DNA from: Natronorubrum daqingense
GTDB lineage: Archaea > Halobacteriota > Halobacteria > Halobacteriales > Natrialbaceae
Direction of reading: 5' to 3'
Length of the DNA stretch: 64,000 bases
Assembly: GCF_001971705.1 (NCBI RefSeq)
Contig: NZ_CP019327.1
Location: 1,612,001 to 1,676,000 of the forward strand
The notes beneath the pieces were generated by a model that worked only from the letters and a program-made list of their open reading frames with translations, was not told the DNA's origin and searched no databases. Below, piece after piece: positions 43,238 to 62,008 of this stretch. Made by a program: the position numbers and the translations under genes. Numbering within the stretch: the stretch's first letter is position 1; every line of letters starts with the position of its first letter.

Positions 43238-45046
43238 ATGTCTCACGACGATTCTTCGCTCGACCTCACGTGGCGCGAAAAGGGAAAGGCCCTCTACCGA
43301 GTTGCAACGTTCCAACCGTGGTTCGCCGCCGGTGTCATCGTTCTCAGTGTAATCGCGGCCCTGTTCGAAGGGGTCGGTCTGAGTTTCATCATGCCGATCG
43401 TCGAGGTCGCGCAGGCGAACGATCCTGCAGCAGAGGCCGACGGCATCTTGGCAGCGTTTCTGGCGGTGTACGACTTCTTCGGCATACCGTTTTCGCTTGG
43501 ATTTCTGGTCGCTGGCGTCGCGCTGGTGATGACTATCAGATTTACGACGTCGTTTCTCGTCGGCTGGTTTCGGGCAGCGATCGAGACGAAATACGTGCGT
43601 CACCTTCAGGAGGAGTCGTTCCGACACGCACTGGATGCAGAAGTCACGTACTTTGACGAAGAGGGATCCGACGACATTCTCAACGCGATCGTGACGCAGG
43701 CCGAGTATGCGGGGAAGGTCATCAGGTACGCGATCAACGTACTCGAGCAGGGGCTACTCGCGGCGATGTACCTGACGATCGCAATGATTCTCTCGCCGTC
43801 GTTAACCGTCGCGACGCTCGTGTTACTCGGTGGCGTCACGATTTTGTTCCGTCGCGTCCTCGATACCGGCTATTCGCTCGGTGACGAGGTCGCGGACGCG
43901 AAAGAGGGCATTCAGTCGAACGCGCAAGCGGGCACGCAGGGCGTCCGCGAGGTGAAATTGTTCGACATGATCGAGGAGTTGAAGTCCGGATTTTCGCGCT
44001 CTGCAGAACGATTCGAGCGAAACCGGATCAAGGTCGAGCGTAACGACGCGGCGATCACCAACTTCTACGAGTTGGCGACCGCCGTGACCGTCTTCGGACT
44101 CATCTACCTCGCGTTGACGTTCTCGTCGATGAACCTCGCCGAACTCGGCGTGTTCCTCTTCGCGATGTTCCAGCTCGGGCCGAAGGTCTCGAGCCTAAAC
44201 AAGTACGTCTACCGCGTGGAGAGCGAACTTCCCCACCTCGTTCGCACGCAGGAGTTCATCGACGAACTCGAGCGAAACACCGAACCCGACGGGGACAGTG
44301 AGCCAGTGCCGAACCCGATCGAACGAACGGAGTTCGACGGCGTGACGTTCAGCTACGACTCGAGCGACGAAGCCGTGCTACGAGACATCTCCTTCGGGTT
44401 CGATCGCGGCGAGTTCGTGGCCTTCGTCGGTCCGTCGGGTGCAGGGAAGTCGACCATCGCGTCCTTACTCGGGCGGATGTACGAGCCGGACGGCGGCGAG
44501 ATCACGGCCAACGGAACCCCGATCGACGAGTTCGACATTCAGGAGTGGCGCTCTCGAGTGACCGTCGTCCGTCAGGACCCCCACGTGTTCAACGATACCC
44601 TTCGTCGGAACGTCACCGTCGGCAACCGAGATGCGACACAGGGAGACATCGAAGAGGCGTGTGCAATCGCACAGGTTACGGAGTTCCTCGAGGAACTGCC
44701 AGAGGGTTACGACACCGTACTGGGCGACCAGGGCGTGAAATTGTCGGGTGGGCAACGTCAGCGGGTGGCGATCGCTCGAGCACTGCTGAAGGACGCAGAT
44801 CTGTTGATTCTTGATGAGGCGACTAGTGATTTGGATACGTCGCTCGAGAAAGAGGTTCATGAGGGAATCGAAGGGATGGAACGTGATTACGCGATGTTGG
44901 TAATAGCGCATCGCTTGTCAACTGTGACGAACGCAGATCATATCTACACGGTTGAAGATGGGACGATAGTTGAAGCAGGTACACACGAGGAATTGATAAA
45001 CGACGGGAGTGAATACTTTGAATTATATACAATTCAATCACAGTAA
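43238..45046 (+). CDS. ABC exporter, permease-ATPase fusion (PglK/MsbA-like)
   Basis: 602 residues: six membrane helices in the first 310, then an ABC ATPase with Walker A GPSGAGKST (about 397-405), Q-loop VVRQDPHVFND, signature KLSGGQRQRVAIA, Walker B LLILDEATSDLD and H-loop IAHRLST. Placed at the head of the glycan cluster, so a flippase for lipid-linked glycan, as PglK in Campylobacter, is the best guess. Base composition falls from GC-rich to AT-rich at about 44.8 kb, within the ATPase domain. Stop shares one base with the next start. Confidence 0.85.
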   Translation: MSHDDSSLDLTWREKGKALYRVATFQPWFAAGVIVLSVIAALFEGVGLSFIMPIVEVAQANDPAAEADGILAAFLAVYDFFGIPFSLGFLVAGVALVMTIRFTTSFLVGWFRAAIETKYVRHLQEESFRHALDAEVTYFDEEGSDDILNAIVTQAEYAGKVIRYAINVLEQGLLAAMYLTIAMILSPSLTVATLVLLGGVTILFRRVLDTGYSLGDEVADAKEGIQSNAQAGTQGVREVKLFDMIEELKSGFSRSAERFERNRIKVERNDAAITNFYELATAVTVFGLIYLALTFSSMNLAELGVFLFAMFQLGPKVSSLNKYVYRVESELPHLVRTQEFIDELERNTEPDGDSEPVPNPIERTEFDGVTFSYDSSDEAVLRDISFGFDRGEFVAFVGPSGAGKSTIASLLGRMYEPDGGEITANGTPIDEFDIQEWRSRVTVVRQDPHVFNDTLRRNVTVGNRDATQGDIEEACAIAQVTEFLEELPEGYDTVLGDQGVKLSGGQRQRVAIARALLKDADLLILDEATSDLDTSLEKEVHEGIEGMERDYAMLVIAHRLSTVTNADHIYTVEDGTIVEAGTHEELINDGSEYFELYTIQSQ

Positions 45047-45831
45047 TGAATAAGAAGTCACTTCGCAGAAGCGTCTCAAAAAGCAATCTGCTGTCGAAAT
45101 TTGCGTCTCCCGTCCACCGAAAATATATGCAGTACTATTGTCAGTCATACACGTGGACAAATCATGGGCGTCACTGGAAGACTCGTGTCGAACCGTTTGA
45201 GTTGATCTCTGTTGACCCAACCACAATTAAAGAAAGGCAAACAAAGCGAGATGTCTTTCATGGCCCATATGTATCTGAGATTCTCTCAGGTGACTGGGAT
45301 AAGGGCACGGAACCATTGGCCGACTACGATCTTTATCAATCTCTCCGAAATCACTTTGAGAGCGGAGTACCTTGGAAAAATACCGAATTTTACGAGCGGG
45401 TATCTGCGAACGTGGATGATGAAGGCTGGCAGAAGTGGGGATGTAACACACTGGAAGAGTTCGAAAGCCGGTTAGATGCAATTGACCAATTGTACTCCAC
45501 TATCAAAACCGAAGGATATCGGACACAGCGGGAATTGATCTCTGAGGATTTGGACGATCCAATATATAACGGCTGGCGATCGCTTCCTCCAGAATTGTAC
45601 GAGATCAGCGTAGTGATTAACCGTTCCGGTGAGGCCGTTTTTTTCGAGGGGCGACATCGGCTAACGATAGCACAATGTCTCAATCTGGACCGGATTCCTG
45701 TACGAGTAAAAGCAAGACATATGGAGTGGCAGAAATATCGAGAGAGTAGAGCAATCACACAAGATGTAGATCAGGTCTTGGCTAGTACAAACTCAGTTGA
45801 TGAGGCTGAACCCTCACACCCAGATTTATAG
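45046..45831 (+). CDS. ParB-like-fold protein of glycan cluster, unknown function
   Basis: 261 residues in AT-rich DNA. The C-terminal part YEISVVINRSGEAVFFEGRH and RLTIAQCLNLDRIPVRV resembles the ParB/sulfiredoxin nuclease fold (conserved G-R-H-R-L). The N-terminal 130 residues have no recognised match. Similar proteins occur in surface-polysaccharide loci, role unknown; ParB-like ATPase or kinase activity is possible. Translationally coupled to the exporter (TAATG). Confidence 0.6.
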   Translation: MNKKSLRRSVSKSNLLSKFASPVHRKYMQYYCQSYTWTNHGRHWKTRVEPFELISVDPTTIKERQTKRDVFHGPYVSEILSGDWDKGTEPLADYDLYQSLRNHFESGVPWKNTEFYERVSANVDDEGWQKWGCNTLEEFESRLDAIDQLYSTIKTEGYRTQRELISEDLDDPIYNGWRSLPPELYEISVVINRSGEAVFFEGRHRLTIAQCLNLDRIPVRVKARHMEWQKYRESRAITQDVDQVLASTNSVDEAEPSHPDL

Positions 45832-45872
45832 TATAGAGTTTAACATTATTAAGCAATTTGTTATTCCAGCCT

Positions 45873-46961
45873 ATGAAATCGCGTAAGATTGCATTTTTCA
45901 CTTCAACTCTAGGTGATGGTGGTGCACAGCGTACCGTGGCCAATCTATCCCGCGGATTTGCTGAGAAAGGCTACACTGTTGATCTAATCACTATTAATTG
46001 TGAGGGGCCCTATATTGAAACGATTCCCGATAGCGTAAATATAATCGAAATTAATTCCGATCGAGCACTGACATCAGTTCTACCAATTGCCAAATATCTT
46101 AGGAGTGAACAACCAGAGGTGTTCTTCACTACAATGGAATATCTTAACGTCATTTCATTATTGGCGTCTGAGATAGCGAAAACTAAGACAAATATAGTTA
46201 TCCGGTGTGCCAATATTCAGAATAAACAAGAATCACAGGGAATTAAACGTATTGTCCAAAGGAAACTTGCTAAACTTCTCTATCCGAGAGCAAGTGAATT
46301 AATCGCATTGTCGGAAGATGTCCGAGAAAATATGTCCGAAATATATGGGTTGGAGGGGAATCGAAATTCAGTTATACACAATCCGGTTCAGGTATCTGAG
46401 ATTCAAAAGCAGTCTACAGAACCAGTTGATTTGTCCTTCTTAGATGAGGGTTCTAAAATGGTTCTGAGTGTGGGTAGCTTATCAGAACAAAAGAATATGG
46501 CAACAGCAATAAAATGCCTCAGTAATCTTTCAGATGGTCAACCTACAGAGTTAGTAATCTTAGGCAAGGGTCCAAAAAAGGAGAGTCTCAAAAGACTTGT
46601 GAACAAGCTAGGGCTTCGTGACAGAGTACACTTCCTGGGATTCGTGGATAACCCTTTCCCATATATGAAAGCCGCTGATGTGTTTGTCCTTACTTCACGG
46701 TGGGAAGGATTCGGTCATGTGATTGTCGAGTCATTGGCTTGTGGGACACCTGTGGTTGCAACAAACTGTCCTGGCGGTCCATCAGAGATTCTCAAAAACG
46801 GTGAATATGGGAGGTTAGTTCCCGTAGGCGATGATGTTGAGTTATCAAGAGAAATAAGTGATATATATGACAGACCCGATGAGAGAGAACACATCTATGA
46901 CAGGGCAAATGATTTTGAGTACACAAAGATAACTGATAAATATGAGGAAGTGATGTTTTAG
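45873..46961 (+). CDS. glycosyltransferase family 4
   Basis: 362 residues, two Rossmann domains of the GT-B fold. N-terminal FFTSTLGDGGAQRTVANLSR; C-terminal VLSVGSLSEQKNM, ADVFVLTSRWEGFGHVIVES (E-x7-E region) and GTPVVATNCPGGPSEIL. Retaining transferase acting on the cytoplasmic side on lipid-linked glycan. ATG at 45873; an upstream TTG is not needed. AT-rich. Confidence 0.9.
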   Translation: MKSRKIAFFTSTLGDGGAQRTVANLSRGFAEKGYTVDLITINCEGPYIETIPDSVNIIEINSDRALTSVLPIAKYLRSEQPEVFFTTMEYLNVISLLASEIAKTKTNIVIRCANIQNKQESQGIKRIVQRKLAKLLYPRASELIALSEDVRENMSEIYGLEGNRNSVIHNPVQVSEIQKQSTEPVDLSFLDEGSKMVLSVGSLSEQKNMATAIKCLSNLSDGQPTELVILGKGPKKESLKRLVNKLGLRDRVHFLGFVDNPFPYMKAADVFVLTSRWEGFGHVIVESLACGTPVVATNCPGGPSEILKNGEYGRLVPVGDDVELSREISDIYDRPDEREHIYDRANDFEYTKITDKYEEVMF

Positions 46962-47040: not shown

Positions 47041-48294
47041 ATGATTGAGTTATTCCCATTCGTATCGTTATCATTACTTTTCATATACATCAGCTTATCG
47101 GACATAAAGCGTTCGAAGCTCGATTTCCTCACCGTATTTGATGTTTTCTATACCTTCGCATATATATTAACGCCCCTCCATATAATTTATTTGGGGGAAA
47201 ATTATGTATCGTCAGGACATCTTGGCGTATATTCTAGCATAAATGTGGGATCTGTAACCTCCATATTGGTTGTAATTATCTTCTATCTAACTCTAAGGAC
47301 TACATATGTAAAATTCAGTCCAAATTTTAACAATACTAATATTCGTATGGAAAATCACTCAGGATATATATTTTTGAGTACCATGTTCATCTTCTTGTCA
47401 ATTATTGGTATTGTTGGATACACATCAGTTTCTGGCGAAAGTCCATTAGCTTTCTTGAAAATCCCAATTAGGTTTGTCTGGGCTGCACTAATGTTGTTAA
47501 TACCGGTTGCGATAATCAGAAAAGATAAACTTTCTATAATTTTGTTAATTTCAGCCAGTACCATTTCAGTCATCAGTTATGGGATCCTGCAAGATCGCAC
47601 TAGGATCGTTATTGCCGCTATTGTATTTGTATGTGTTATATATTCAATTAGCAGCAGAGCAGGGAGGTGGATTTTAGCAATTTCATCAATAACGGTTCCA
47701 GCATTTCTTGTATCTGCAGGTAGTCGTTCTGGTCAAGGACAATTCATTACGGATTTTAATGGAATAACGGACGCATATTCATCTGTCATACGAGAAGGTT
47801 CACATGCATATATGTCTCTAGAAACATCGTTACAACACCCTGAGAGTGATACGCTTATTGGTATACAAGATGTAATAATTGGGCCGCTTCATCTTCTCCC
47901 ACAACGCCTAATTGGTGTGGATTTTCCAGGAACCATCACACATTGGAACACCTACTTGATTACAGGAAATTACGAAAGTGTAGTATTGCCAGGTATAGTA
48001 GGATACAGTTGGTATTCAGGGATTTATATTGGTATAATAGCCATTCCGATTTTATATTCATTATTCGGTAAATTAATAAGTGAGTTTCTCAACAGTATGG
48101 AGGATAACTTAGCAAACAATGTGGTATATTACACGTTCGCAGCTCTATGGGGATTTTCATTTGTACGGAGTGGGGACATACGGGTCTTTTTCAGAGGACA
48201 TGTCGAATGGATTTTTGTAATAGTAGTTCTAATAGTCCTATACGGATTCAACCAGCGGTGTGCGCTGGCTGGACTGCTCCGCCAGAACGAGTGA
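47041..48294 (+). CDS. Wzy-like O-antigen/oligosaccharide polymerase
   Basis: 417 residues, strongly hydrophobic with about 11-12 membrane helices and a larger external loop near 245-290 (SGQGQFITDF, REGSHAYMSL, PLHLLPQRLIG) as in oligosaccharide repeat-unit polymerases. The last 14 residues (QRCALAGLLRQNE) are encoded in GC-rich DNA next to the transposase relic, so the native C-terminus may have been replaced. Presence of a polymerase indicates that a repeating glycan is made. Confidence 0.75.
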   Translation: MIELFPFVSLSLLFIYISLSDIKRSKLDFLTVFDVFYTFAYILTPLHIIYLGENYVSSGHLGVYSSINVGSVTSILVVIIFYLTLRTTYVKFSPNFNNTNIRMENHSGYIFLSTMFIFLSIIGIVGYTSVSGESPLAFLKIPIRFVWAALMLLIPVAIIRKDKLSIILLISASTISVISYGILQDRTRIVIAAIVFVCVIYSISSRAGRWILAISSITVPAFLVSAGSRSGQGQFITDFNGITDAYSSVIREGSHAYMSLETSLQHPESDTLIGIQDVIIGPLHLLPQRLIGVDFPGTITHWNTYLITGNYESVVLPGIVGYSWYSGIYIGIIAIPILYSLFGKLISEFLNSMEDNLANNVVYYTFAALWGFSFVRSGDIRVFFRGHVEWIFVIVVLIVLYGFNQRCALAGLLRQNE

Positions 48295-48319
48295 AATCGC
48301 TCCCGACGGGTTTCGGTCG

Positions 48320-48612
48320 CTGTGGTTAAGCTAGACGCTCAATTCGTGGCGGGCAAGTGCAGTCAGACAGCCGCCAGCATCGACGAGAAAATCTGTCTCG
48401 CCTATATCGTGTTTCTCGGTAGGCCGATGTAAGAACGCTGCCGCGGGGTCAGTACCGCGGCGGATAATGACATCGATTTCGAGCAACAACTTTGAGTCTG
48501 TGTCGATCGCGGCGTACAGTCACTTTTTCTTACCATCTACCTCAATCAGTTTCTCATCAACCACGCCCCGTCTAAGGTCTTCTCTGAGCAGTCTAGCGAG
48601 TTGCATGAGCTC
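48320..48612 (-). pseudogene. transposase relic (IS6-like), two in-frame stops
   Basis: Read on the complement: VVDEKLIEVDGKKK, stop, LYAAIDTDSKLLLEID, RRGTDPAAAFLHRPTEKH, FLVDAGGCLTALARHELSV, stop. It matches the DDE core of the haloarchaeal IS6-type transposases as I remember them (Asp in VDEK, Asp in AAIDTDS). TGA at 48520-48522 replaces a Trp codon; TAG at 48331-48333 ends the frame, after which similarity is lost. Both ends are missing; no inverted repeats seen. Confidence 0.75.
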
Positions 48613-48739
48613 TTCTAGCCATCACCTGTTCGTTCCCTAAACACTCATTTAGATGTGCCTCTGGTCCCGACTCAACACTATAATTAATACTCACTCTATC
48701 CGATCGTATAATGGTGAATTTCCTGCTAAATCTGAACTA

Positions 48740-49866: not shown

Positions 49867-50976
49867 ATGAGAATCTGTTTCATATCCTCAGACATATACA
49901 CATATATTAATCAGGTGGACAATGACGCCTCGGGCGGGGCTGAACGACAACAATACATTATTGCAAACGAACTCCTCGAGAGAGGCGATGAGGTAGCGAC
50001 AATAGTCGGTGACTTTGGACAGCCCCCGTACAAACGCCAGGATGGTTTCGAGATTTGGAAAGGTTGTCCGGGTAGTATTTCTAGCATTACATCAATTCCC
50101 GCAAGCGTAATTAGCCTGTGGAGAGCCATGAAAAATGCAGACAGTGATATGTATTATATTCGTGGATCACCCCGTCTATTTGTGATTTCGACACTGCTGA
50201 GTCGGTTTCTCCGTAAACGGGTTCTCTTTTGCGTTGCCAACGAATCAGATGTTGATCTCGAGTATCTCGAGCAAAAGTATGGATCGCTGTTTGTGAAAAC
50301 CTATTCAAATTTCATTCGTCGGGCAGACATAGTCGTTGCACAGACAGCGACGCAACAGCAAATGTTACAAGAAAATTTTGGAGTCGATTCGACGATAATC
50401 CCGAATTGCTACGATCTCCCACCGGAATCGGAACTCCTAGATCACGACTCGAGAGAGTACGTGCTCTGGGTCGGTCGAAGCAACAAAGAGAAGAAAAAGC
50501 CGATGCGGTTTCTAGAGTTAGCCAAATCTGCCCCCGAGATCCAATTTGTGATGGTTGCCCAGCCAAGCAATGATGGGAGTCATCACGAACACGTAATGGC
50601 AGAAGCTGCCAACGTCGATAACCTGCGTTTTGTCGATACGGTTCGACCGGATAAGATTCACAAATACTACCGAAAAGCCAGTCTTCTCGTTAACACCTCC
50701 GATTACGAAGGATTCCCGAATACGTTCCTCGAGGCTTGGAGATATGAAACACCCGTTGTATCGCTCTACTATTCACACGACGATGCGTTTACGGCAGGAA
50801 ATGCAGGTTTCCGATCGGGATCAATAGATCAATTGAGAAAGGATGTAGCCGAATTGTGCAATAATGACGAGACACGAGCAAAGATGGGTACTGACGCGAG
50901 GGCGTTCCTGAAAGACAACTACCTTTTGGAGAAGGTCGTTGATCAATATGAAATATTATTCGAGAATGAGTTATGA
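49867..50976 (+). CDS. glycosyltransferase family 4
   Basis: 369 residues, GT-B. Starts MRICFISSDIYTYINQ, NDASGGAERQQYIIANELLERG (acceptor domain), WVGRSNKEKKKPMRFLELAK, and LVNTSDYEGFPNTFLEAWRY in place of the classical E-x7-E stretch. Probably adds a sugar in glycan assembly; donor unknown. Codon use is intermediate between host and AT-rich genes. Confidence 0.88.
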   Translation: MRICFISSDIYTYINQVDNDASGGAERQQYIIANELLERGDEVATIVGDFGQPPYKRQDGFEIWKGCPGSISSITSIPASVISLWRAMKNADSDMYYIRGSPRLFVISTLLSRFLRKRVLFCVANESDVDLEYLEQKYGSLFVKTYSNFIRRADIVVAQTATQQQMLQENFGVDSTIIPNCYDLPPESELLDHDSREYVLWVGRSNKEKKKPMRFLELAKSAPEIQFVMVAQPSNDGSHHEHVMAEAANVDNLRFVDTVRPDKIHKYYRKASLLVNTSDYEGFPNTFLEAWRYETPVVSLYYSHDDAFTAGNAGFRSGSIDQLRKDVAELCNNDETRAKMGTDARAFLKDNYLLEKVVDQYEILFENEL

Positions 50977-51794: not shown

Positions 51795-53618
51795 TCACAC
51801 TATTCGATTAGCTACCTCCTCCTGAAAATTCCAAATTGAATGGACACGAGTAGGCCAATCAACATCTGACTTCCTATTATATCTCAGGTCAGTCTTCGTC
51901 TGGTGAATGTATCCAAGTGGAAGATATACAGCAATACAGTGAGGATCAATTCCTATCTGATCAGAATAATTTTGGAGATGACTACACAGCAGCTTTCCAA
52001 TCGGCATATTATTGATAAAATAGTTCTTGAATGACGAATTAAAATTAGTACCGAAGGCGTCAATGAGTTGTAGTATAAGATATCCAACATCGATAATTGG
52101 ATTAGCACTAATTTTAGAAAACTCCCAATCAATAACGTATGATACCTCCTGGTTCCTGAGGTAGATATTCGATCCAGATAGATCCCCATGCGTAACCACT
52201 TGAGGAACCTCGAGTTCGCGATCCACTGACGGGGGATTAGATAAACCCACTTGCTCTACTGTCAGTTCCCGTTCGATCTCGGCTGGCGTTTTGGTGACCC
52301 ACCTATCACACGTTGCTCGCTGGAACTCGATCAACCAATCGAACACGGCCTCGAGGTGGCGATCGACGCTCTCGGGCGTCGCTTCTAACGTTTGATCCAG
52401 CGGCGTCCCACTCACGGGTTGTTCGATCCGTTCCGGTCCGAACGTCGTCTCCTGCGATTCCCCAGTCGGCACCGTGTCTGCGAGTGAATCGGGCACGGTA
52501 TTGAGTGCGGCTTGGGCGTTCTCGTTTACCGTCGCCTGCCAACTGCTGTTCGGAACTTTTCGGATTCGTTGAATCTCGTTGTCCTCGAGTTCGAGGACGG
52601 TCGATCGATTCTTCCCGGCTAGAACGATACCGTTCGGGGAAGACAGCTCCCCCGCTGCGTTCTGGCGGCGACAAACGAACAGATATCTCGGATAGCACTG
52701 CCGAAGGATCCCTGCTCGCTGTGCGAGTCGGGAAATCTGACGGGCAATAACGAACGGCGTCGTACTCGCCGTTTTATTCGACCCGTGGAGCAGCCAGTCG
52801 TGGGCTTCTTGACTCCGAACATCGAACGCCCGCTGGTTCTCGTGTCGCGACGTCGAAAGCAGTGCGTGTTCCCCCACAACCGACAGGCCAGCACGCCGTA
52901 CTGCACGAGTAATTCCGAAGGAATGCCCTCGAAGCGACGACTCGAAACGCTCGCGAACGCCACTGGACGAATCACCCAACCCGAGTCGTTCCGTCAGACC
53001 AATCTCTCGCGTCCAGCCGTCGGTCAGTACCAGGAGCGACCCGTCCTCGGCCAAAATGGGTTCGAGTTGCTCGAGGTACTCATCAATCTGGTTCGCTCGA
53101 CACTGCACGACGATCACGTCGAACGATTTCGGAGGGAACGAAAGTTCCTCGAGATCGCTGTGAACGGGGTTCACAGTCGTTCCCGTCGCGTTCGCAACTG
53201 CCTGTTGTGCTCGAAGGCGGGGCACGCTCGTGTCAACTGCGTACAGTTCCTCCACCACTTCGCTCAAGAGAATCCCCACGCTCTCGTCGTGGGTGCCGAC
53301 GACCAACCCACGTCCGGAAAGTACCGACGAAACGAGCACGCGCCAGCACGCCGTTCGCGTCTTGAAAAATCGATCGACTATCGAGCCGTCCATGTAATCG
53401 TCCCTGACGCGTGCTAAGACCTCGTCGAGTGTGTCGGCTTGCACGGTTGCGAGCGCTTCGAGATCGTCCACGTCTGTTTCTTCCGTCTCGAAATCGATGG
53501 TGCTTGGAATACCCTCTCTGAGAGTTACGTCCATCCCACAATGGTCACAGGAGGGGGCGACGAGATGACCGGCGAAACAATACGGGCAAATAGGAGACGT
53601 ACCGTTCGAGCCACTCAT
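51795..53618 (-). CDS. fusion of zinc finger, methyltransferase-like domain and APH/choline-kinase-like domain
   Basis: 607 residues. (1) C11-x2-C14 and C24-x2-C27 form a zinc finger. (2) About 80-260: a Rossmann methyltransferase-like region (GRGLVVGTHDESVGILLSEV, PPKSFDVIVVQCR, EDGSLLVLTDGW) with a degenerate glycine motif. (3) About 315-600: phosphotransferase domain with the Brenner-type motif THGDLSGSN (H477, D479, N484) and metal motif VIDWEF (D497). Would phosphorylate a small or sugar-like substrate. Its first 1.4 kb is GC-rich; the last 0.4 kb, from about 52.2 kb, is AT-rich. I know of no described family with this architecture. Confidence 0.7.
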   Translation of the reverse strand: MSGSNGTSPICPYCFAGHLVAPSCDHCGMDVTLREGIPSTIDFETEETDVDDLEALATVQADTLDEVLARVRDDYMDGSIVDRFFKTRTACWRVLVSSVLSGRGLVVGTHDESVGILLSEVVEELYAVDTSVPRLRAQQAVANATGTTVNPVHSDLEELSFPPKSFDVIVVQCRANQIDEYLEQLEPILAEDGSLLVLTDGWTREIGLTERLGLGDSSSGVRERFESSLRGHSFGITRAVRRAGLSVVGEHALLSTSRHENQRAFDVRSQEAHDWLLHGSNKTASTTPFVIARQISRLAQRAGILRQCYPRYLFVCRRQNAAGELSSPNGIVLAGKNRSTVLELEDNEIQRIRKVPNSSWQATVNENAQAALNTVPDSLADTVPTGESQETTFGPERIEQPVSGTPLDQTLEATPESVDRHLEAVFDWLIEFQRATCDRWVTKTPAEIERELTVEQVGLSNPPSVDRELEVPQVVTHGDLSGSNIYLRNQEVSYVIDWEFSKISANPIIDVGYLILQLIDAFGTNFNSSFKNYFINNMPIGKLLCSHLQNYSDQIGIDPHCIAVYLPLGYIHQTKTDLRYNRKSDVDWPTRVHSIWNFQEEVANRIV

Positions 53619-53655: not shown

Positions 53656-54756
53656 TCATCCGCCAACACCCTGCAGTTCCCGCGGTGCTCGAGTGCCAAG
53701 CTCTACGAGGACCTCGGTCGTCTCCTCGACCGTTCGTTCCCAGCGAAACGCATCGTCTAACGTTGGCGTGGTTTCCCCCTCGAGTTTCCGTCGAATACGT
53801 CTAGCAACCGCCTCGGGTGTCACCTCGGAAACGTACGTCACCGAATCGCCGAACGTCGACCGAACCTGCGGTAGATCCGAACTGACGACCGGGACACCCG
53901 TCGACAGGGCCTCCATGATCGTCCGCGGGACGCCTTCGGCCCGACTCGCGAGAACCAACAGGTCCGCACCTCGATAGACGCTCGACATCTCGCCGTAGGG
54001 AACCGAGCCGAGGAAGGTAACGTTCGACCCAGCGCGCTCCTCGAGCACCGATCGAAGTGCTCCGGTGCCACAGAAGTACAGCTCGGCCTTCGAATCCGCC
54101 AGCCGTTCGAACGCCTCTAGTACCAACTCCGGACGCTTCCCCTCGACCAACCGTCCGACGAACAACACGACGGGACCCTCGCTGTCGATCAGCTCGCTTT
54201 CCGGCCCGGCGGGCGTAAAGCGCTCCGTGTCGATGCCGTTCGAGACGACCTCGATCCGACTCGAGACGCCGAACTCCCGAACCCGTTCCCGGTCGGTCTC
54301 GGTGTAACAGAACACGACATCAGCTTGGTTGAACGTCCATCGACCAATAGACCGCAGATACAGATCGAAGACCCACTCGGGCGCGTTCTGCGAGTAGAGG
54401 CCGTGGTTCGTGATCGCCAGTGGGGTGTCGCCCAGAAACCGCTTGAGCGCCGCGAGGTTCGTCGCAGCGTAGAGGTGAGAGTGGGCGTGGATCACGTCGA
54501 AGTCCGCCGCCGCGGCCAGATACTGCGCCAGTCCGGGGCTCAGATCGTTGCCCAGCGGGCTCGCGACGGGATCGTATCGCACGACCGTGTATCCGTCTCG
54601 CTCTTCCGTGTGTGGCTCTCCCGGATCCGTTCGCACCGTCACCACCGTCACGTCGTGTCCCATCGCCGCCTGATCGCGACTCATCGCGTGGACGTGGTAC
54701 GGGCCGCCGCCTTTCACGTCCGGGTACACCTTCTGTGCGACGCGCAGAATCCGCAT
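53656..54756 (-). CDS. glycosyltransferase family 4
   Basis: 366 residues, GT-B. MRILRVAQKVYPDVKGGGPYHVH start, VVLFVGRLVEGKRPELVLEA, and LVLASRAEGVPRTIMEALSTG (E-x7-E). GC-rich with native codon use, unlike the genes at 45-52 kb. Start is 54756; the open frame runs upstream to 54948 but without conserved residues. 37 nt before the fusion gene on the same strand, so co-transcription is likely. Confidence 0.9.
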   Translation of the reverse strand: MRILRVAQKVYPDVKGGGPYHVHAMSRDQAAMGHDVTVVTVRTDPGEPHTEERDGYTVVRYDPVASPLGNDLSPGLAQYLAAAADFDVIHAHSHLYAATNLAALKRFLGDTPLAITNHGLYSQNAPEWVFDLYLRSIGRWTFNQADVVFCYTETDRERVREFGVSSRIEVVSNGIDTERFTPAGPESELIDSEGPVVLFVGRLVEGKRPELVLEAFERLADSKAELYFCGTGALRSVLEERAGSNVTFLGSVPYGEMSSVYRGADLLVLASRAEGVPRTIMEALSTGVPVVSSDLPQVRSTFGDSVTYVSEVTPEAVARRIRRKLEGETTPTLDDAFRWERTVEETTEVLVELGTRAPRELQGVGG

Positions 54757-55045
54757 TATCTGTGAATTCTCGAGGAATCTGATATGTCGTTCGGTTCGGC
54801 GTGTCGTCGCCAGACAACCGTATTTAACTGGCCGACACACGACCATCGGCGATGCCAACACAGCGGGGAGACGAGTCCCCTCGTGTCTAACGTGACCCGT
54901 CGTCGAAAACCCGGTCTGAGGGGGACACTCGACACCGACGGCGAACACTGCACGGAAAGCGTCTCCCTCGAGACCGAATCGTCAGCGCAACTGACGTTCT
55001 ATTGATCGATACAATCAACACGAACAAGACCGACCACTGAGACGA

Positions 55046-56621: not shown

Positions 56622-57701
56622 TCACTCAGAGAGATGTTGCCAGATATTCGTTGGTTCGGCGTCGTTTAGATCAGCATTTGTCTCCATCTGACGTAATTCA
56701 GAGAGACAACGTTTGGCGACGAGTGGATAGACGTCTGCAGGCGTGACCGCGAATTCGAGTTGCATGATTTCTGTCCAATTCTCCGCCCAAATGTCCGCAA
56801 CGACTCGTGGATAGAGTTCGTCATTCAGATGCAGACCGAACTCGTGGCCTTCTTCGACGACCATCGTTCGGATCTGTTTGCGAATCCGGGCTGATGTACA
56901 ATAGGTTGCTACCAGAAATTCAGCACCGGATTCCACCTCATCGGGGTTTCGACCGAATTGCTCGCGATTCAGTTCTTTGAACTCCTCACGGACTAGCTTG
57001 ACGCGACGACCATGCTCGTCACTGCGGACGACCACACCCTCGACCGGTACGTCATCAGCGAGAGTTGAGGACGGGAATGTATACGCCTCCGGATCGAATC
57101 CATTGTCAACGTGTTCGAGAATCGATGCTGGAACGAACGATGACGTAATCGGCGTGTCCTCCATTCGAATGCGCTCGAACACATCCCAAGCAGCATCGAT
57201 GTCAAGGAATTCCGCGAACGTCTCCTCGTAGGGATCCCCCGGCGGCGTCATCGTCTCGATCGGTTCGAAAGGGAGGACGTCGAACCCGACGAGTGCCGGA
57301 AGGTCGCGGTCAGAATACCCGTAATCAAGCGTCGAGTAGACGAGGTTCTCCGCGTAGATGATCAGTGGTCCATCGTATTCCTCGTGGAGCGTCCGTAGCA
57401 CAGCAGTGTTGATACCCGTTCGAAGACAACGGACAGCTCGATGGAGCGCACCATCGATCTCAGTCAAAGAATCGGTGTGTGAACCACGGATTGAGCGTCG
57501 TGTCCCGAATACGAGACTCCCATCGCCATCTGCGGCGGTCTCAACGGCTCCTGGGTAGGAGTCTGCGTACCGCTCATCGAATAGCGTGAACCGGAATGCA
57601 CTCCCATCGAACTTCTCAACGAGAGCCAGGTCCTCGGCGTCGAAGAACGTCGCTGGCACGACAGGGTGGTCGTATCTTGGGACTTTTGGATAGACTTTCA
57701 T
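56622..57701 (-). CDS. RNA ligase family protein (nucleotidyltransferase)
   Basis: 359 residues with the five ligase motifs in order: I LVEKFDGSAFRF (nucleophile K30), Ia-like FGTRRS (66-71), III/IIIa IIYAENL (114-120), IV VEGVVVRS (220-227), V RVKLV (233-237). No DNA-ligase OB or BRCT domain; a helical C-terminus (240-359) follows, as in T4 Rnl2/Rnl1-like enzymes. Seals RNA via ATP-dependent adenylylation; substrate (RtcB-independent repair, tRNA?) not known. Gene lies alone in a poorly conserved stretch. Confidence 0.75.
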   Translation of the reverse strand: MKVYPKVPRYDHPVVPATFFDAEDLALVEKFDGSAFRFTLFDERYADSYPGAVETAADGDGSLVFGTRRSIRGSHTDSLTEIDGALHRAVRCLRTGINTAVLRTLHEEYDGPLIIYAENLVYSTLDYGYSDRDLPALVGFDVLPFEPIETMTPPGDPYEETFAEFLDIDAAWDVFERIRMEDTPITSSFVPASILEHVDNGFDPEAYTFPSSTLADDVPVEGVVVRSDEHGRRVKLVREEFKELNREQFGRNPDEVESGAEFLVATYCTSARIRKQIRTMVVEEGHEFGLHLNDELYPRVVADIWAENWTEIMQLEFAVTPADVYPLVAKRCLSELRQMETNADLNDAEPTNIWQHLSE

Positions 57702-60508: not shown

Positions 60509-62008
60509 CTACCGCCGCACCATCGTCCACACGTCCTCGAGCACCGCCCAGATCTGCCGGATCACGATCGACAGGTCGACCCAGAACGACTGGCGACGGA
60601 TGTACTCGAGGTCGTAGCGAAGCTTCGCACTCGGATCGGTGCTGCTCGCGTCGTGGATCTGTGCTAGCCCCGTCAGGCCGGGTTTCACGAACCAGCGCTT
60701 TCGCCACGAGGGCGCGTCTTGCTCGAGGAGCACTTCTTCTTGCGTCCAGACGGCTCGCGGTCCGACGACGCTCATGTCCCCGACGAAGATCGACCACAGC
60801 TGCGGGAGTTCGTCGAGATGAGTCTTGCGCAAAACCCGGCCGACGCGAGTGATGCGATCGTTGTCCTCGTCCTCGGTCGGCGTCGCGTCCTCGCCTTCGG
60901 GGATCATCGTCCGGAACTTGTAGATCGGGAACGTCTCGCCGAACCCGGCCGTTCGATCCTGGCTGTAGAACACCGGACCCGGACTATCGATCTTGATCAC
61001 CGCGGCGATGACGGCCATTAGCGGGGCGAAGACGAGCAAGCCGACCAGCGCGAAGACGACGTCGAACAGCCGTTTGCACAGGTAATCCAGCGGGTCCCAC
61101 GGCTCGAGGTCGACGTCGACCAGTTCGCCGACGGCTCCCTCGGAGACGAGCACGCTGTCGGTGTACTCGCGGTGGACCTTCGCCGAGACGCCGTGTTCGT
61201 GACAGGCGTCGAGCGCGCCGAAGAACTCCGCTCGGTCTGCGTGTCGGAACGCGAGCACGACGGTGTCGATATCACGCTCGACGAGGACGTCCTCGAGTCG
61301 CGAGAGGCCGCCGAGGCGCGGATAGCCCGCAATTTTCTGCGAGCCCGCCGACAGGTGAGTCACGCCATCGCGTCCGTCGCTCTCCACCGTCTCGAGTGCG
61401 AGCCCGCCGTCCGTCACGGCGTTCGCGCCGGTGCCCGCCTCACCTGCGTCGTCGATCTCGTCCTCGTCGAAGGTGTGAAAGCCGACGCTCGAGGGGCAGA
61501 GATAGCCGAGGACCGGCGCGTCGACCGTCGGTGCGATTCGCTCGAGTTGGGCGATATCGTCGCCGACGAAGAGCGTCCGTCCCGGTTCGCCGTTTGGCGG
61601 GCGGCGGATCCAGACGAACCACGCGGGAAGCGCGACGCCGAGGAGGCCGATAATCGTGATCAGCGTCGCGCGCGGGAATCGAAGCGACCAGTTGAAGTAG
61701 CCAAGCGAGGCGAGTGCGAGGCCGGCGACGATGACTCGCTTGTGGGTGAGCGCGACGGTGTCGAGGATCCGCTGGGGTCGGGGTCGATACAGCGGGAGCA
61801 GACACAGCGTCACGGCGAGGACGCTCAGGCCGAGCATCCAGTACAGTTCGCCGCCGGTGACCAGCGTCGGCTCGAGGCGATTGAACAGCGGGACGTACGT
61901 CGTCACGAGCGATTGGGTGAACGGATGGTTGGCGCTCGCCACGGCACCGACGGTCAACCCGACGACGCCGAGGAGGCTGACAATCCGATAGCGCCACCCG
62001 GTTAGCAT
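60509..62008 (-). CDS. polyprenyl-phosphate sugar-1-phosphate transferase (WcaJ/PglC-type)
   Basis: 499 residues: five N-terminal membrane helices, a CoA-binding/Rossmann-like middle (about 140-270) with an acidic insert, a membrane hairpin, then the catalytic sugar transferase domain: KRLFDVVFALVGLLVFAPL, SPGPVFYSQDRTAGFG, FPIYKFRTMIPE, HLDELPQLWSIFVGDMSVVG and GPRA. Moves sugar-1-phosphate from UDP-sugar to dolichyl phosphate, the first step of N-glycan or exopolysaccharide assembly. Plausible starter for the glycan of the 43-54 kb cluster. Confidence 0.9.
   Translation of the reverse strand: MLTGWRYRIVSLLGVVGLTVGAVASANHPFTQSLVTTYVPLFNRLEPTLVTGGELYWMLGLSVLAVTLCLLPLYRPRPQRILDTVALTHKRVIVAGLALASLGYFNWSLRFPRATLITIIGLLGVALPAWFVWIRRPPNGEPGRTLFVGDDIAQLERIAPTVDAPVLGYLCPSSVGFHTFDEDEIDDAGEAGTGANAVTDGGLALETVESDGRDGVTHLSAGSQKIAGYPRLGGLSRLEDVLVERDIDTVVLAFRHADRAEFFGALDACHEHGVSAKVHREYTDSVLVSEGAVGELVDVDLEPWDPLDYLCKRLFDVVFALVGLLVFAPLMAVIAAVIKIDSPGPVFYSQDRTAGFGETFPIYKFRTMIPEGEDATPTEDEDNDRITRVGRVLRKTHLDELPQLWSIFVGDMSVVGPRAVWTQEEVLLEQDAPSWRKRWFVKPGLTGLAQIHDASSTDPSAKLRYDLEYIRRQSFWVDLSIVIRQIWAVLEDVWTMVRR

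What the first reader, a model, noticed from the sequence alone, without database searches (positions are those of the whole stretch)
51795..53618. Zinc finger, methyltransferase and kinase-like domains in one protein
One 607-residue protein has a CxxC-CxxC finger, a methyltransferase-like fold with a weak glycine motif, and an aminoglycoside/choline kinase-type domain with intact HGD and D-W-E motifs. It lies in a glycan cluster, so it might modify a sugar (phosphoryl or phosphocholine-like decoration) after sensing or binding through the dead methyltransferase. I know of no described family like this.
Basis: partly seen in the sequence, partly recalled or inferred. Interest (0 to 1): 0.75.

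Follow-up and report, generated by a model that had tools for sequence, protein, structure and literature searches.

The report
Archaeal methyltransferase-kinase for surface glycans
This gene makes a salt-loving archaeon's two-enzyme protein (a methyltransferase-type half and a sugar-kinase-type half) that probably puts a phosphate on a surface sugar chain just before the chain is moved out of the cell, much like chain-capping enzymes known only from bacteria.

Summary
The ORF is on the minus strand (53618..51795, 607 aa) and has a CxxC-x9-CxxC ribbon, a class I methyltransferase (MTase) fold and an APH-type kinase domain, predicted together with high confidence (pLDDT 87.8, pTM 0.88). It is not an artefactual join. 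Full-length homologues occur in 28 of 125 genomes of its family (Natrialbaceae), in a few other haloarchaea and in one actinobacterial contig. Kinase motifs (K, HGD, N, DWE) are intact in all 38 members. The MTase GxG motif is intact in most but changed at least 7 times, including in the window's own four-member clade. A Wzx-type flippase gene lies within 400 bp in 23 of 39 copies. The window's clade instead sits with a WbaP-type initiating transferase and, in two of four loci, a PglK-like ABC flippase. In three genomes of another haloarchaeal family the two halves are separate adjacent genes. Best reading: a cytoplasmic glycan kinase, usually with a working MTase, that phosphorylates (and perhaps methyl-caps) a lipid-linked glycan before flipping. 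The same arrangement, MTase then kinase, is known in bacterial O-antigen terminators: WbdD, and K. pneumoniae O7 ORF6-N, whose kinase is also APH-like. This is an archaeal variant of a known kind. Activity is untested.

The parts
51795..53618 (-). Zn-ribbon / methyltransferase-like / APH-kinase protein, 607 aa
   Evidence: 38-member family
53538..53588 (-). CxxC-x9-CxxC zinc ribbon-like motif (residues 11-27)
   Evidence: sequence; at least 3 Cys in 21 of 38 members; low model confidence here
52665..53366 (-). Class I methyltransferase-like region (about residues 85-318)
   Evidence: Pfam; family profile vs PDB methyltransferases; model; Foldseek
53262..53318 (-). Remodelled SAM motif I (residues 101-119, SGRGLVVGTHDESVGILLS)
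   Evidence: GxG lost; GTHDES also in L064, GDHDEC in L080, GAETEA in L077; changed at least 7 times on the kinase tree
51801..52628 (-). APH-type kinase domain (residues 331-606)
   Evidence: Pfam APH; model pLDDT 95.7; Foldseek
52557..52559 (-). Invariant K354, candidate ATP-binding lysine
   Evidence: invariant in A3; role inferred from kinase folds
52167..52190 (-). Catalytic loop HGDLSGSN (residues 477-484)
   Evidence: HGD and N invariant
52122..52130 (-). Metal-binding D-W-E (residues 497-499)
   Evidence: invariant in the family
53656..54948 (-). GT4 glycosyltransferase, 37 bp upstream, same strand; internal start near 54756 likely
   Evidence: 58% identical gene next to the family gene in L064
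51003..51749 (-). Free-standing SAM methyltransferase, 45 bp downstream, same strand
   Evidence: Pfam Methyltransf_11 E=8.7e-12
43238..45046 (+). MsbA/PglK-like ABC flippase-type transporter
   Evidence: 68% identical copy beside the relative in L077
47041..48294 (+). Membrane protein with about 9 TM segments, Wzy polymerase-like candidate
   Evidence: hydropathy; no Pfam hit above cut-off, so inference
45858..46961 (+). PglJ-like GT4 glycosyltransferase
49867..50976 (+). GT4 glycosyltransferase
60509..62008 (-). WbaP-type polyprenyl-phosphate sugar-phosphate transferase (initiator)
   Evidence: PF02397 E=1.5e-59; homologues in all three other loci of the window's clade

Best explanation
The protein is a soluble cytoplasmic glycan-modifying enzyme of surface-polysaccharide loci. 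The APH-fold domain transfers phosphate from ATP to a hydroxyl of a sugar in a polyprenyl-linked glycan; in most relatives the attached MTase domain then methylates the product (phosphate or sugar). The modified glycan is then taken by the flippase encoded next door. In the window's clade the SAM site is remodelled, so the product there is most likely an unmethylated phosphate, or the methyl step is done by the free-standing MTase gene directly downstream. Shown: the fold (by prediction), intact kinase motifs in all members, lability of the SAM motif, operon-like linkage to flippase or glycan genes, a two-gene version of the same pair. Inferred: catalysis, the substrate, the order phosphate-then-methyl, and timing before flipping.
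For: Kinase residues K354, HGD, N484, D497-W-E499 and D510 are invariant over 35 aligned members, while the MTase GxG is lost or changed at least 7 times: kinase activity looks like the constant function. A Wzx-type flippase (PF01943) lies within 400 bp of 23 of 39 copies, mostly just upstream on the same strand with gaps of -1 to 9 bp in the best cases; the ten genomes counted carry 5-12 such genes, so well under one adjacency is expected (rough because loci are related). The Halomontanus rarus copy has the same order: flippase, this gene, beta-helix protein. The window's clade shares a WbaP-type initiator in all four loci, a PglK-like ABC transporter in two and the GT4 in two. Separate, same-strand MTase and kinase genes (4-bp overlap in L109), beside polysaccharide lyase and beta-helix genes, in L107-L109. 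Foldseek: MTases, and antibiotic-sugar kinases or homoserine kinase. No TM segment in the protein. Same domain order and chemistry shown for WbdD and O7 ORF6-N (PMC3482155, PMC11231755).
Against: No biochemistry, and no haloarchaeal glycan with a phosphate or methyl-phosphate cap was found in the library searched. Over a dozen copies have no flippase within 400 bp, including the window. APH-fold kinases also act on small molecules. The bacterial terminators have a coiled-coil ruler that this protein lacks.
Confidence: 0.5

Rival explanations
1. It is a monosaccharide kinase (like N-acetylhexosamine 1-kinase, also APH family) that makes sugar-1-phosphate for a nucleotide-sugar in the same pathway.
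For: APH family includes such kinases (own knowledge); a nucleotidyltransferase PF14907 lies beside the relatives in L064 and L077.
Against: The nucleotidyltransferase is seen in only two loci, whereas a flippase is adjacent in 23 of 39 copies; a fused or co-transcribed MTase has no role in that scheme.
Confidence: 0.17
2. It is a chain-length terminator in the strict WbdD sense: it caps the non-reducing end and so stops polymerisation and licenses export by an ABC transporter.
For: Same MTase-kinase order; the window cluster has an ABC transporter and a free-standing MTase.
Against: No coiled-coil ruler; most relatives sit with Wzx flippases, where chain length is normally set outside the membrane (own knowledge).
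Confidence: 0.15
3. The MTase-like part is a sensor and the kinase regulates a protein partner (for example flippase or polymerase) rather than a sugar.
For: SAM motif degenerate in the window's clade; tight linkage to membrane transport genes.
Against: Nearest solved kinases act on sugar-like small molecules or homoserine; SAM motif intact in most of the family.
Confidence: 0.1
4. It is a phosphocholine-type or antibiotic-resistance kinase.
For: APH fold, weak match to APH(3') models.
Against: All APH NCBIfam scores are far below cut-off (20 against 205 bits); no recognised choline or cytidylyl genes; the gene lies in glycan loci.
Confidence: 0.04

Closest known systems
Klebsiella pneumoniae O7 ORF6 N-terminal terminator (PMC11231755)
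   Same: N-terminal SAM MTase followed by an APH-fold kinase (AmiN-like), in a glycan cluster; shown to make phosphate and methyl-phosphate on terminal rhamnose
   Different: O7 protein adds a CBM, a coiled coil and glycosyltransferases and works with an ABC exporter; the archaeal protein has an N-terminal zinc ribbon, ends after the kinase, and its relatives are mostly beside Wzx flippases. Sequence kinship could not be tested (no O7 sequence on hand)
WbdD of E. coli O9a / K. pneumoniae O3 (PMC3482155)
   Same: MTase then kinase in one protein, phosphorylates then methylates a glycan end
   Different: WbdD kinase resembles eukaryotic protein kinases and has a C-terminal coiled coil; WbdD not among listed sequence or fold hits
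APH phosphotransferases, PF01636
   Same: Fold, HGD..N and D-x-E motifs, Pfam match over cut-off
   Different: Fused to MTase, about 9-19% identity to solved members, glycan locus
RlmA-type Zn-ribbon methyltransferases (1p91)
   Same: Cys4 ribbon before a class I MTase; weak profile hit (E=0.0067)
   Different: No kinase; rRNA substrate; nothing here points to rRNA

Membership tests
APH phosphotransferase superfamily (PF01636) | Profile match over curated cut-off and kinase fold | tested here: met
   31.5 bits vs 23.2; 12 of 13 members match at E up to 0.1; Foldseek E 2e-7
APH phosphotransferase superfamily (PF01636) | Catalytic HGD..N and metal-binding D with N-lobe lysine | tested here: met
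   intact in 38 of 38 members; invariant in A3
Class I SAM methyltransferase | Fold and profile match | tested here: met
Class I SAM methyltransferase | GxG SAM-binding motif in the window copy | tested here: not met
   GTHDES in place of GxG; intact in 27 of 38 members
WbdD/O7-type MTase-kinase terminators | MTase followed by kinase in one chain in a glycan cluster | tested here: met
WbdD/O7-type MTase-kinase terminators | C-terminal coiled-coil ruler / polymerase recruitment region | tested here: not met
   protein ends with the kinase helices at residue 606
WbdD/O7-type MTase-kinase terminators | Cluster exports by an ABC transporter | tested here: inconclusive
   ABC transporter in the window cluster but Wzx flippases next to most relatives
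WbdD/O7-type MTase-kinase terminators | Phosphorylates a glycan end and methylates the phosphate | not testable with these tools
   needs enzyme assay
Aminoglycoside resistance APH(3') | NCBIfam equivalog cut-off | tested here: not met
   20.5 bits vs 205

The most novel reading that the evidence does not exclude
Haloarchaea make phosphorylated (and in many species methyl-phosphate) surface polysaccharides, using a kinase-methyltransferase that marks lipid-linked glycans for a dedicated neighbouring flippase: a decorate-then-flip licence in archaea, arrived at separately from bacterial WbdD. In the window's clade the methyl half has been rebuilt around a conserved HDE motif with another role.
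Probability: 0.22. Interest if true: 0.75.

Novelty: new variant of a known kind. Interest (0 to 1): 0.5.

Why it matters
If right, it gives archaea a kinase-methyltransferase glycan step so far shown only in bacterial O-antigen assembly, predicts phosphate on haloarchaeal surface glycans, and names about 40 loci in which this can be tested. The tight link to flippase genes makes the question of how archaeal flippases recognise finished glycans directly testable.

Tried and rejected
Artefactual join: rejected, homologues span the GC break. PADLOC mad2 hit: only the generic MTase fold, also found in the neighbouring MTase. Plasmid search: one record only, Halomontanus rarus. DNA search for the donor of the AT-rich island: among the listed matches in 125 genomes none is long; they are the GT4 gene, a short repeated element and short pieces of the GT4 at 49.9 kb. 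Searches for archaeal phospho-glycan papers gave nothing specific. Wider phylum sample added only the split version. A link between intact GxG and a nearby flippase (21 of 27 vs 4 of 11, Fisher p 0.02; my own tally with a looser limit of about 700 bp than the 400 bp used in the main count) is confounded by ancestry and not relied on.

Full report
What is there. The ORF at 51795-53618 is on the minus strand and codes 607 residues. It has a C-x2-C-x9-C-x2-C ribbon at residues 11-27, a methyltransferase match (Methyltransf_11 E=3.6e-5, over cut-off; Methyltransf_25 E=1.5e-5, just under it) and an APH kinase match (E=1.9e-7, over cut-off). AlphaFold2 on a 35-member alignment gives pLDDT 87.8 and pTM 0.88 for the whole protein and pLDDT 95.7 for the kinase alone. 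Foldseek against the PDB returns methyltransferases and antibiotic or homoserine kinases as separate matches and APH-type kinases for the kinase domain.

Not a join. GC falls from about 0.60 to 0.35 near codon 455, window about 52,150-52,300, at the edge of an AT-rich stretch (about 45.0-52.2 kb). Full-length relatives of uniform GC align across the break, and the catalytic motifs themselves lie in or at the edge of the AT-rich part. A recombination break inside a working gene is a likely reason (inference).

Family. Profile search found members in 28 of 125 genomes of the window's family and 28 of 391 of its class; named carriers include Natronolimnohabitans, Natronococcus, Natronosalvus, Halobaculum and one Nitriliruptoraceae contig, and a Halomontanus plasmid. 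That the window's family is Natrialbaceae is inferred from shared loci: genome G028, of the same family, gives the same protein as Natronolimnohabitans innermongolicus. Invariant residues over 35 members include R338, K354, H477-G-D479, N484, D497-W-E499 and D510. The kinase motifs are intact in 38 of 38 members. By a crude pattern count the MTase GxG is intact in 27 of 38 and changes at least 7 times on a tree built mainly from kinase columns; the ribbon is present in 21 of 38 and changes at least 5 times. The window belongs to a well-supported clade of four (100/99) in which GxG is gone; three of the four keep G-x-H-D-E-S/C, which points to rebuilding rather than decay.

Context. The gene lies between a GT4 gene (37 bp) and a second MTase gene (45 bp), all on the minus strand, in a cluster with GT4 genes, a PglK/MsbA-like ABC transporter, a 9-TM protein and, further off, a WbaP-type initiating transferase. 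In relatives a Wzx-type flippase is within 400 bp in 23 of 39 copies, usually just upstream on the same strand; the ten genomes counted hold only 5-12 such genes. Secreted proteins of one cluster, of which one scanned member gives a weak parallel beta-helix match, and a large membrane protein recur nearby. The other three loci of the window's clade share the WbaP-type gene; L077 shares the ABC transporter (68%) and L064 the GT4 (58%).

Split form. In three genomes of another family of the same order (L107-L109), a ribbon-MTase of 346-347 aa and an APH kinase are separate genes on one strand; in L109 the kinase is 314 aa and the two overlap by 4 bp. In L109 a beta-helix protein, a polysaccharide lyase 14 protein and a GT4 gene lie nearby. 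The family profile hits both halves in the matching order. This supports a joint function of the two activities.

Mechanism. The most economical reading is a cytoplasmic enzyme (no TM segment) that phosphorylates a lipid-linked glycan before the neighbouring flippase moves it; most relatives can probably also methylate. In bacteria the same order of domains makes a methyl-phosphate cap: WbdD (PMC3482155) and K. pneumoniae O7 ORF6-N, whose kinase has an APH-like fold and whose activity was shown by mutation, MS and NMR (PMC11231755). The archaeal family may work like these, but the window protein lacks the coiled coil that is part of their terminator design, so it is not filed as a member. Substrate and catalysis remain inferred.

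Verdict. A real haloarchaeal family for which no name or description was found here, and a new variant of a known kind (glycan MTase-kinase).

Noticed in passing
window about 52150-52300: GC changes from about 0.60 to 0.35 inside the coding sequence, at the edge of an AT-rich island (45.0-52.2 kb); looks like a recombination break within the kinase domain.
   Followed up: partly
window about 48250-48660: Short element matching many places across the related genomes (about 70-89% identity), probably an insertion-sequence remnant.
   Followed up: no
L107, L108, L109 (L109:8139-10120): Unfused ribbon-MTase and APH kinase genes on one strand (4-bp overlap in L109), with beta-helix and polysaccharide lyase 14 genes nearby.
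   Followed up: yes
window 45046-45831; L053, L071, L093: Protein of about 260-280 aa without any Pfam match that recurs in these glycan loci.
   Followed up: no
L064:17624-19362, L077:7029-8916: Nucleotidyltransferase (PF14907) and thymidylate-kinase-like gene directly beside relatives of the window gene.
   Followed up: partly
L093 (G027), L063/L092 (G226), L077: Degraded or interrupted family members or matches: a 163-aa fragment, an internal TGA, and a match broken into two pieces in L077.
   Followed up: no
L051, L052, L067, L069, L085, L094: Conserved cassette flippase - MTase-kinase - secreted protein (annotated as parallel beta-helix in L094, a Halomontanus plasmid).
   Followed up: partly
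window 56622-57701: Weak RNA ligase-type match (PF09414, below cut-off).
   Followed up: no
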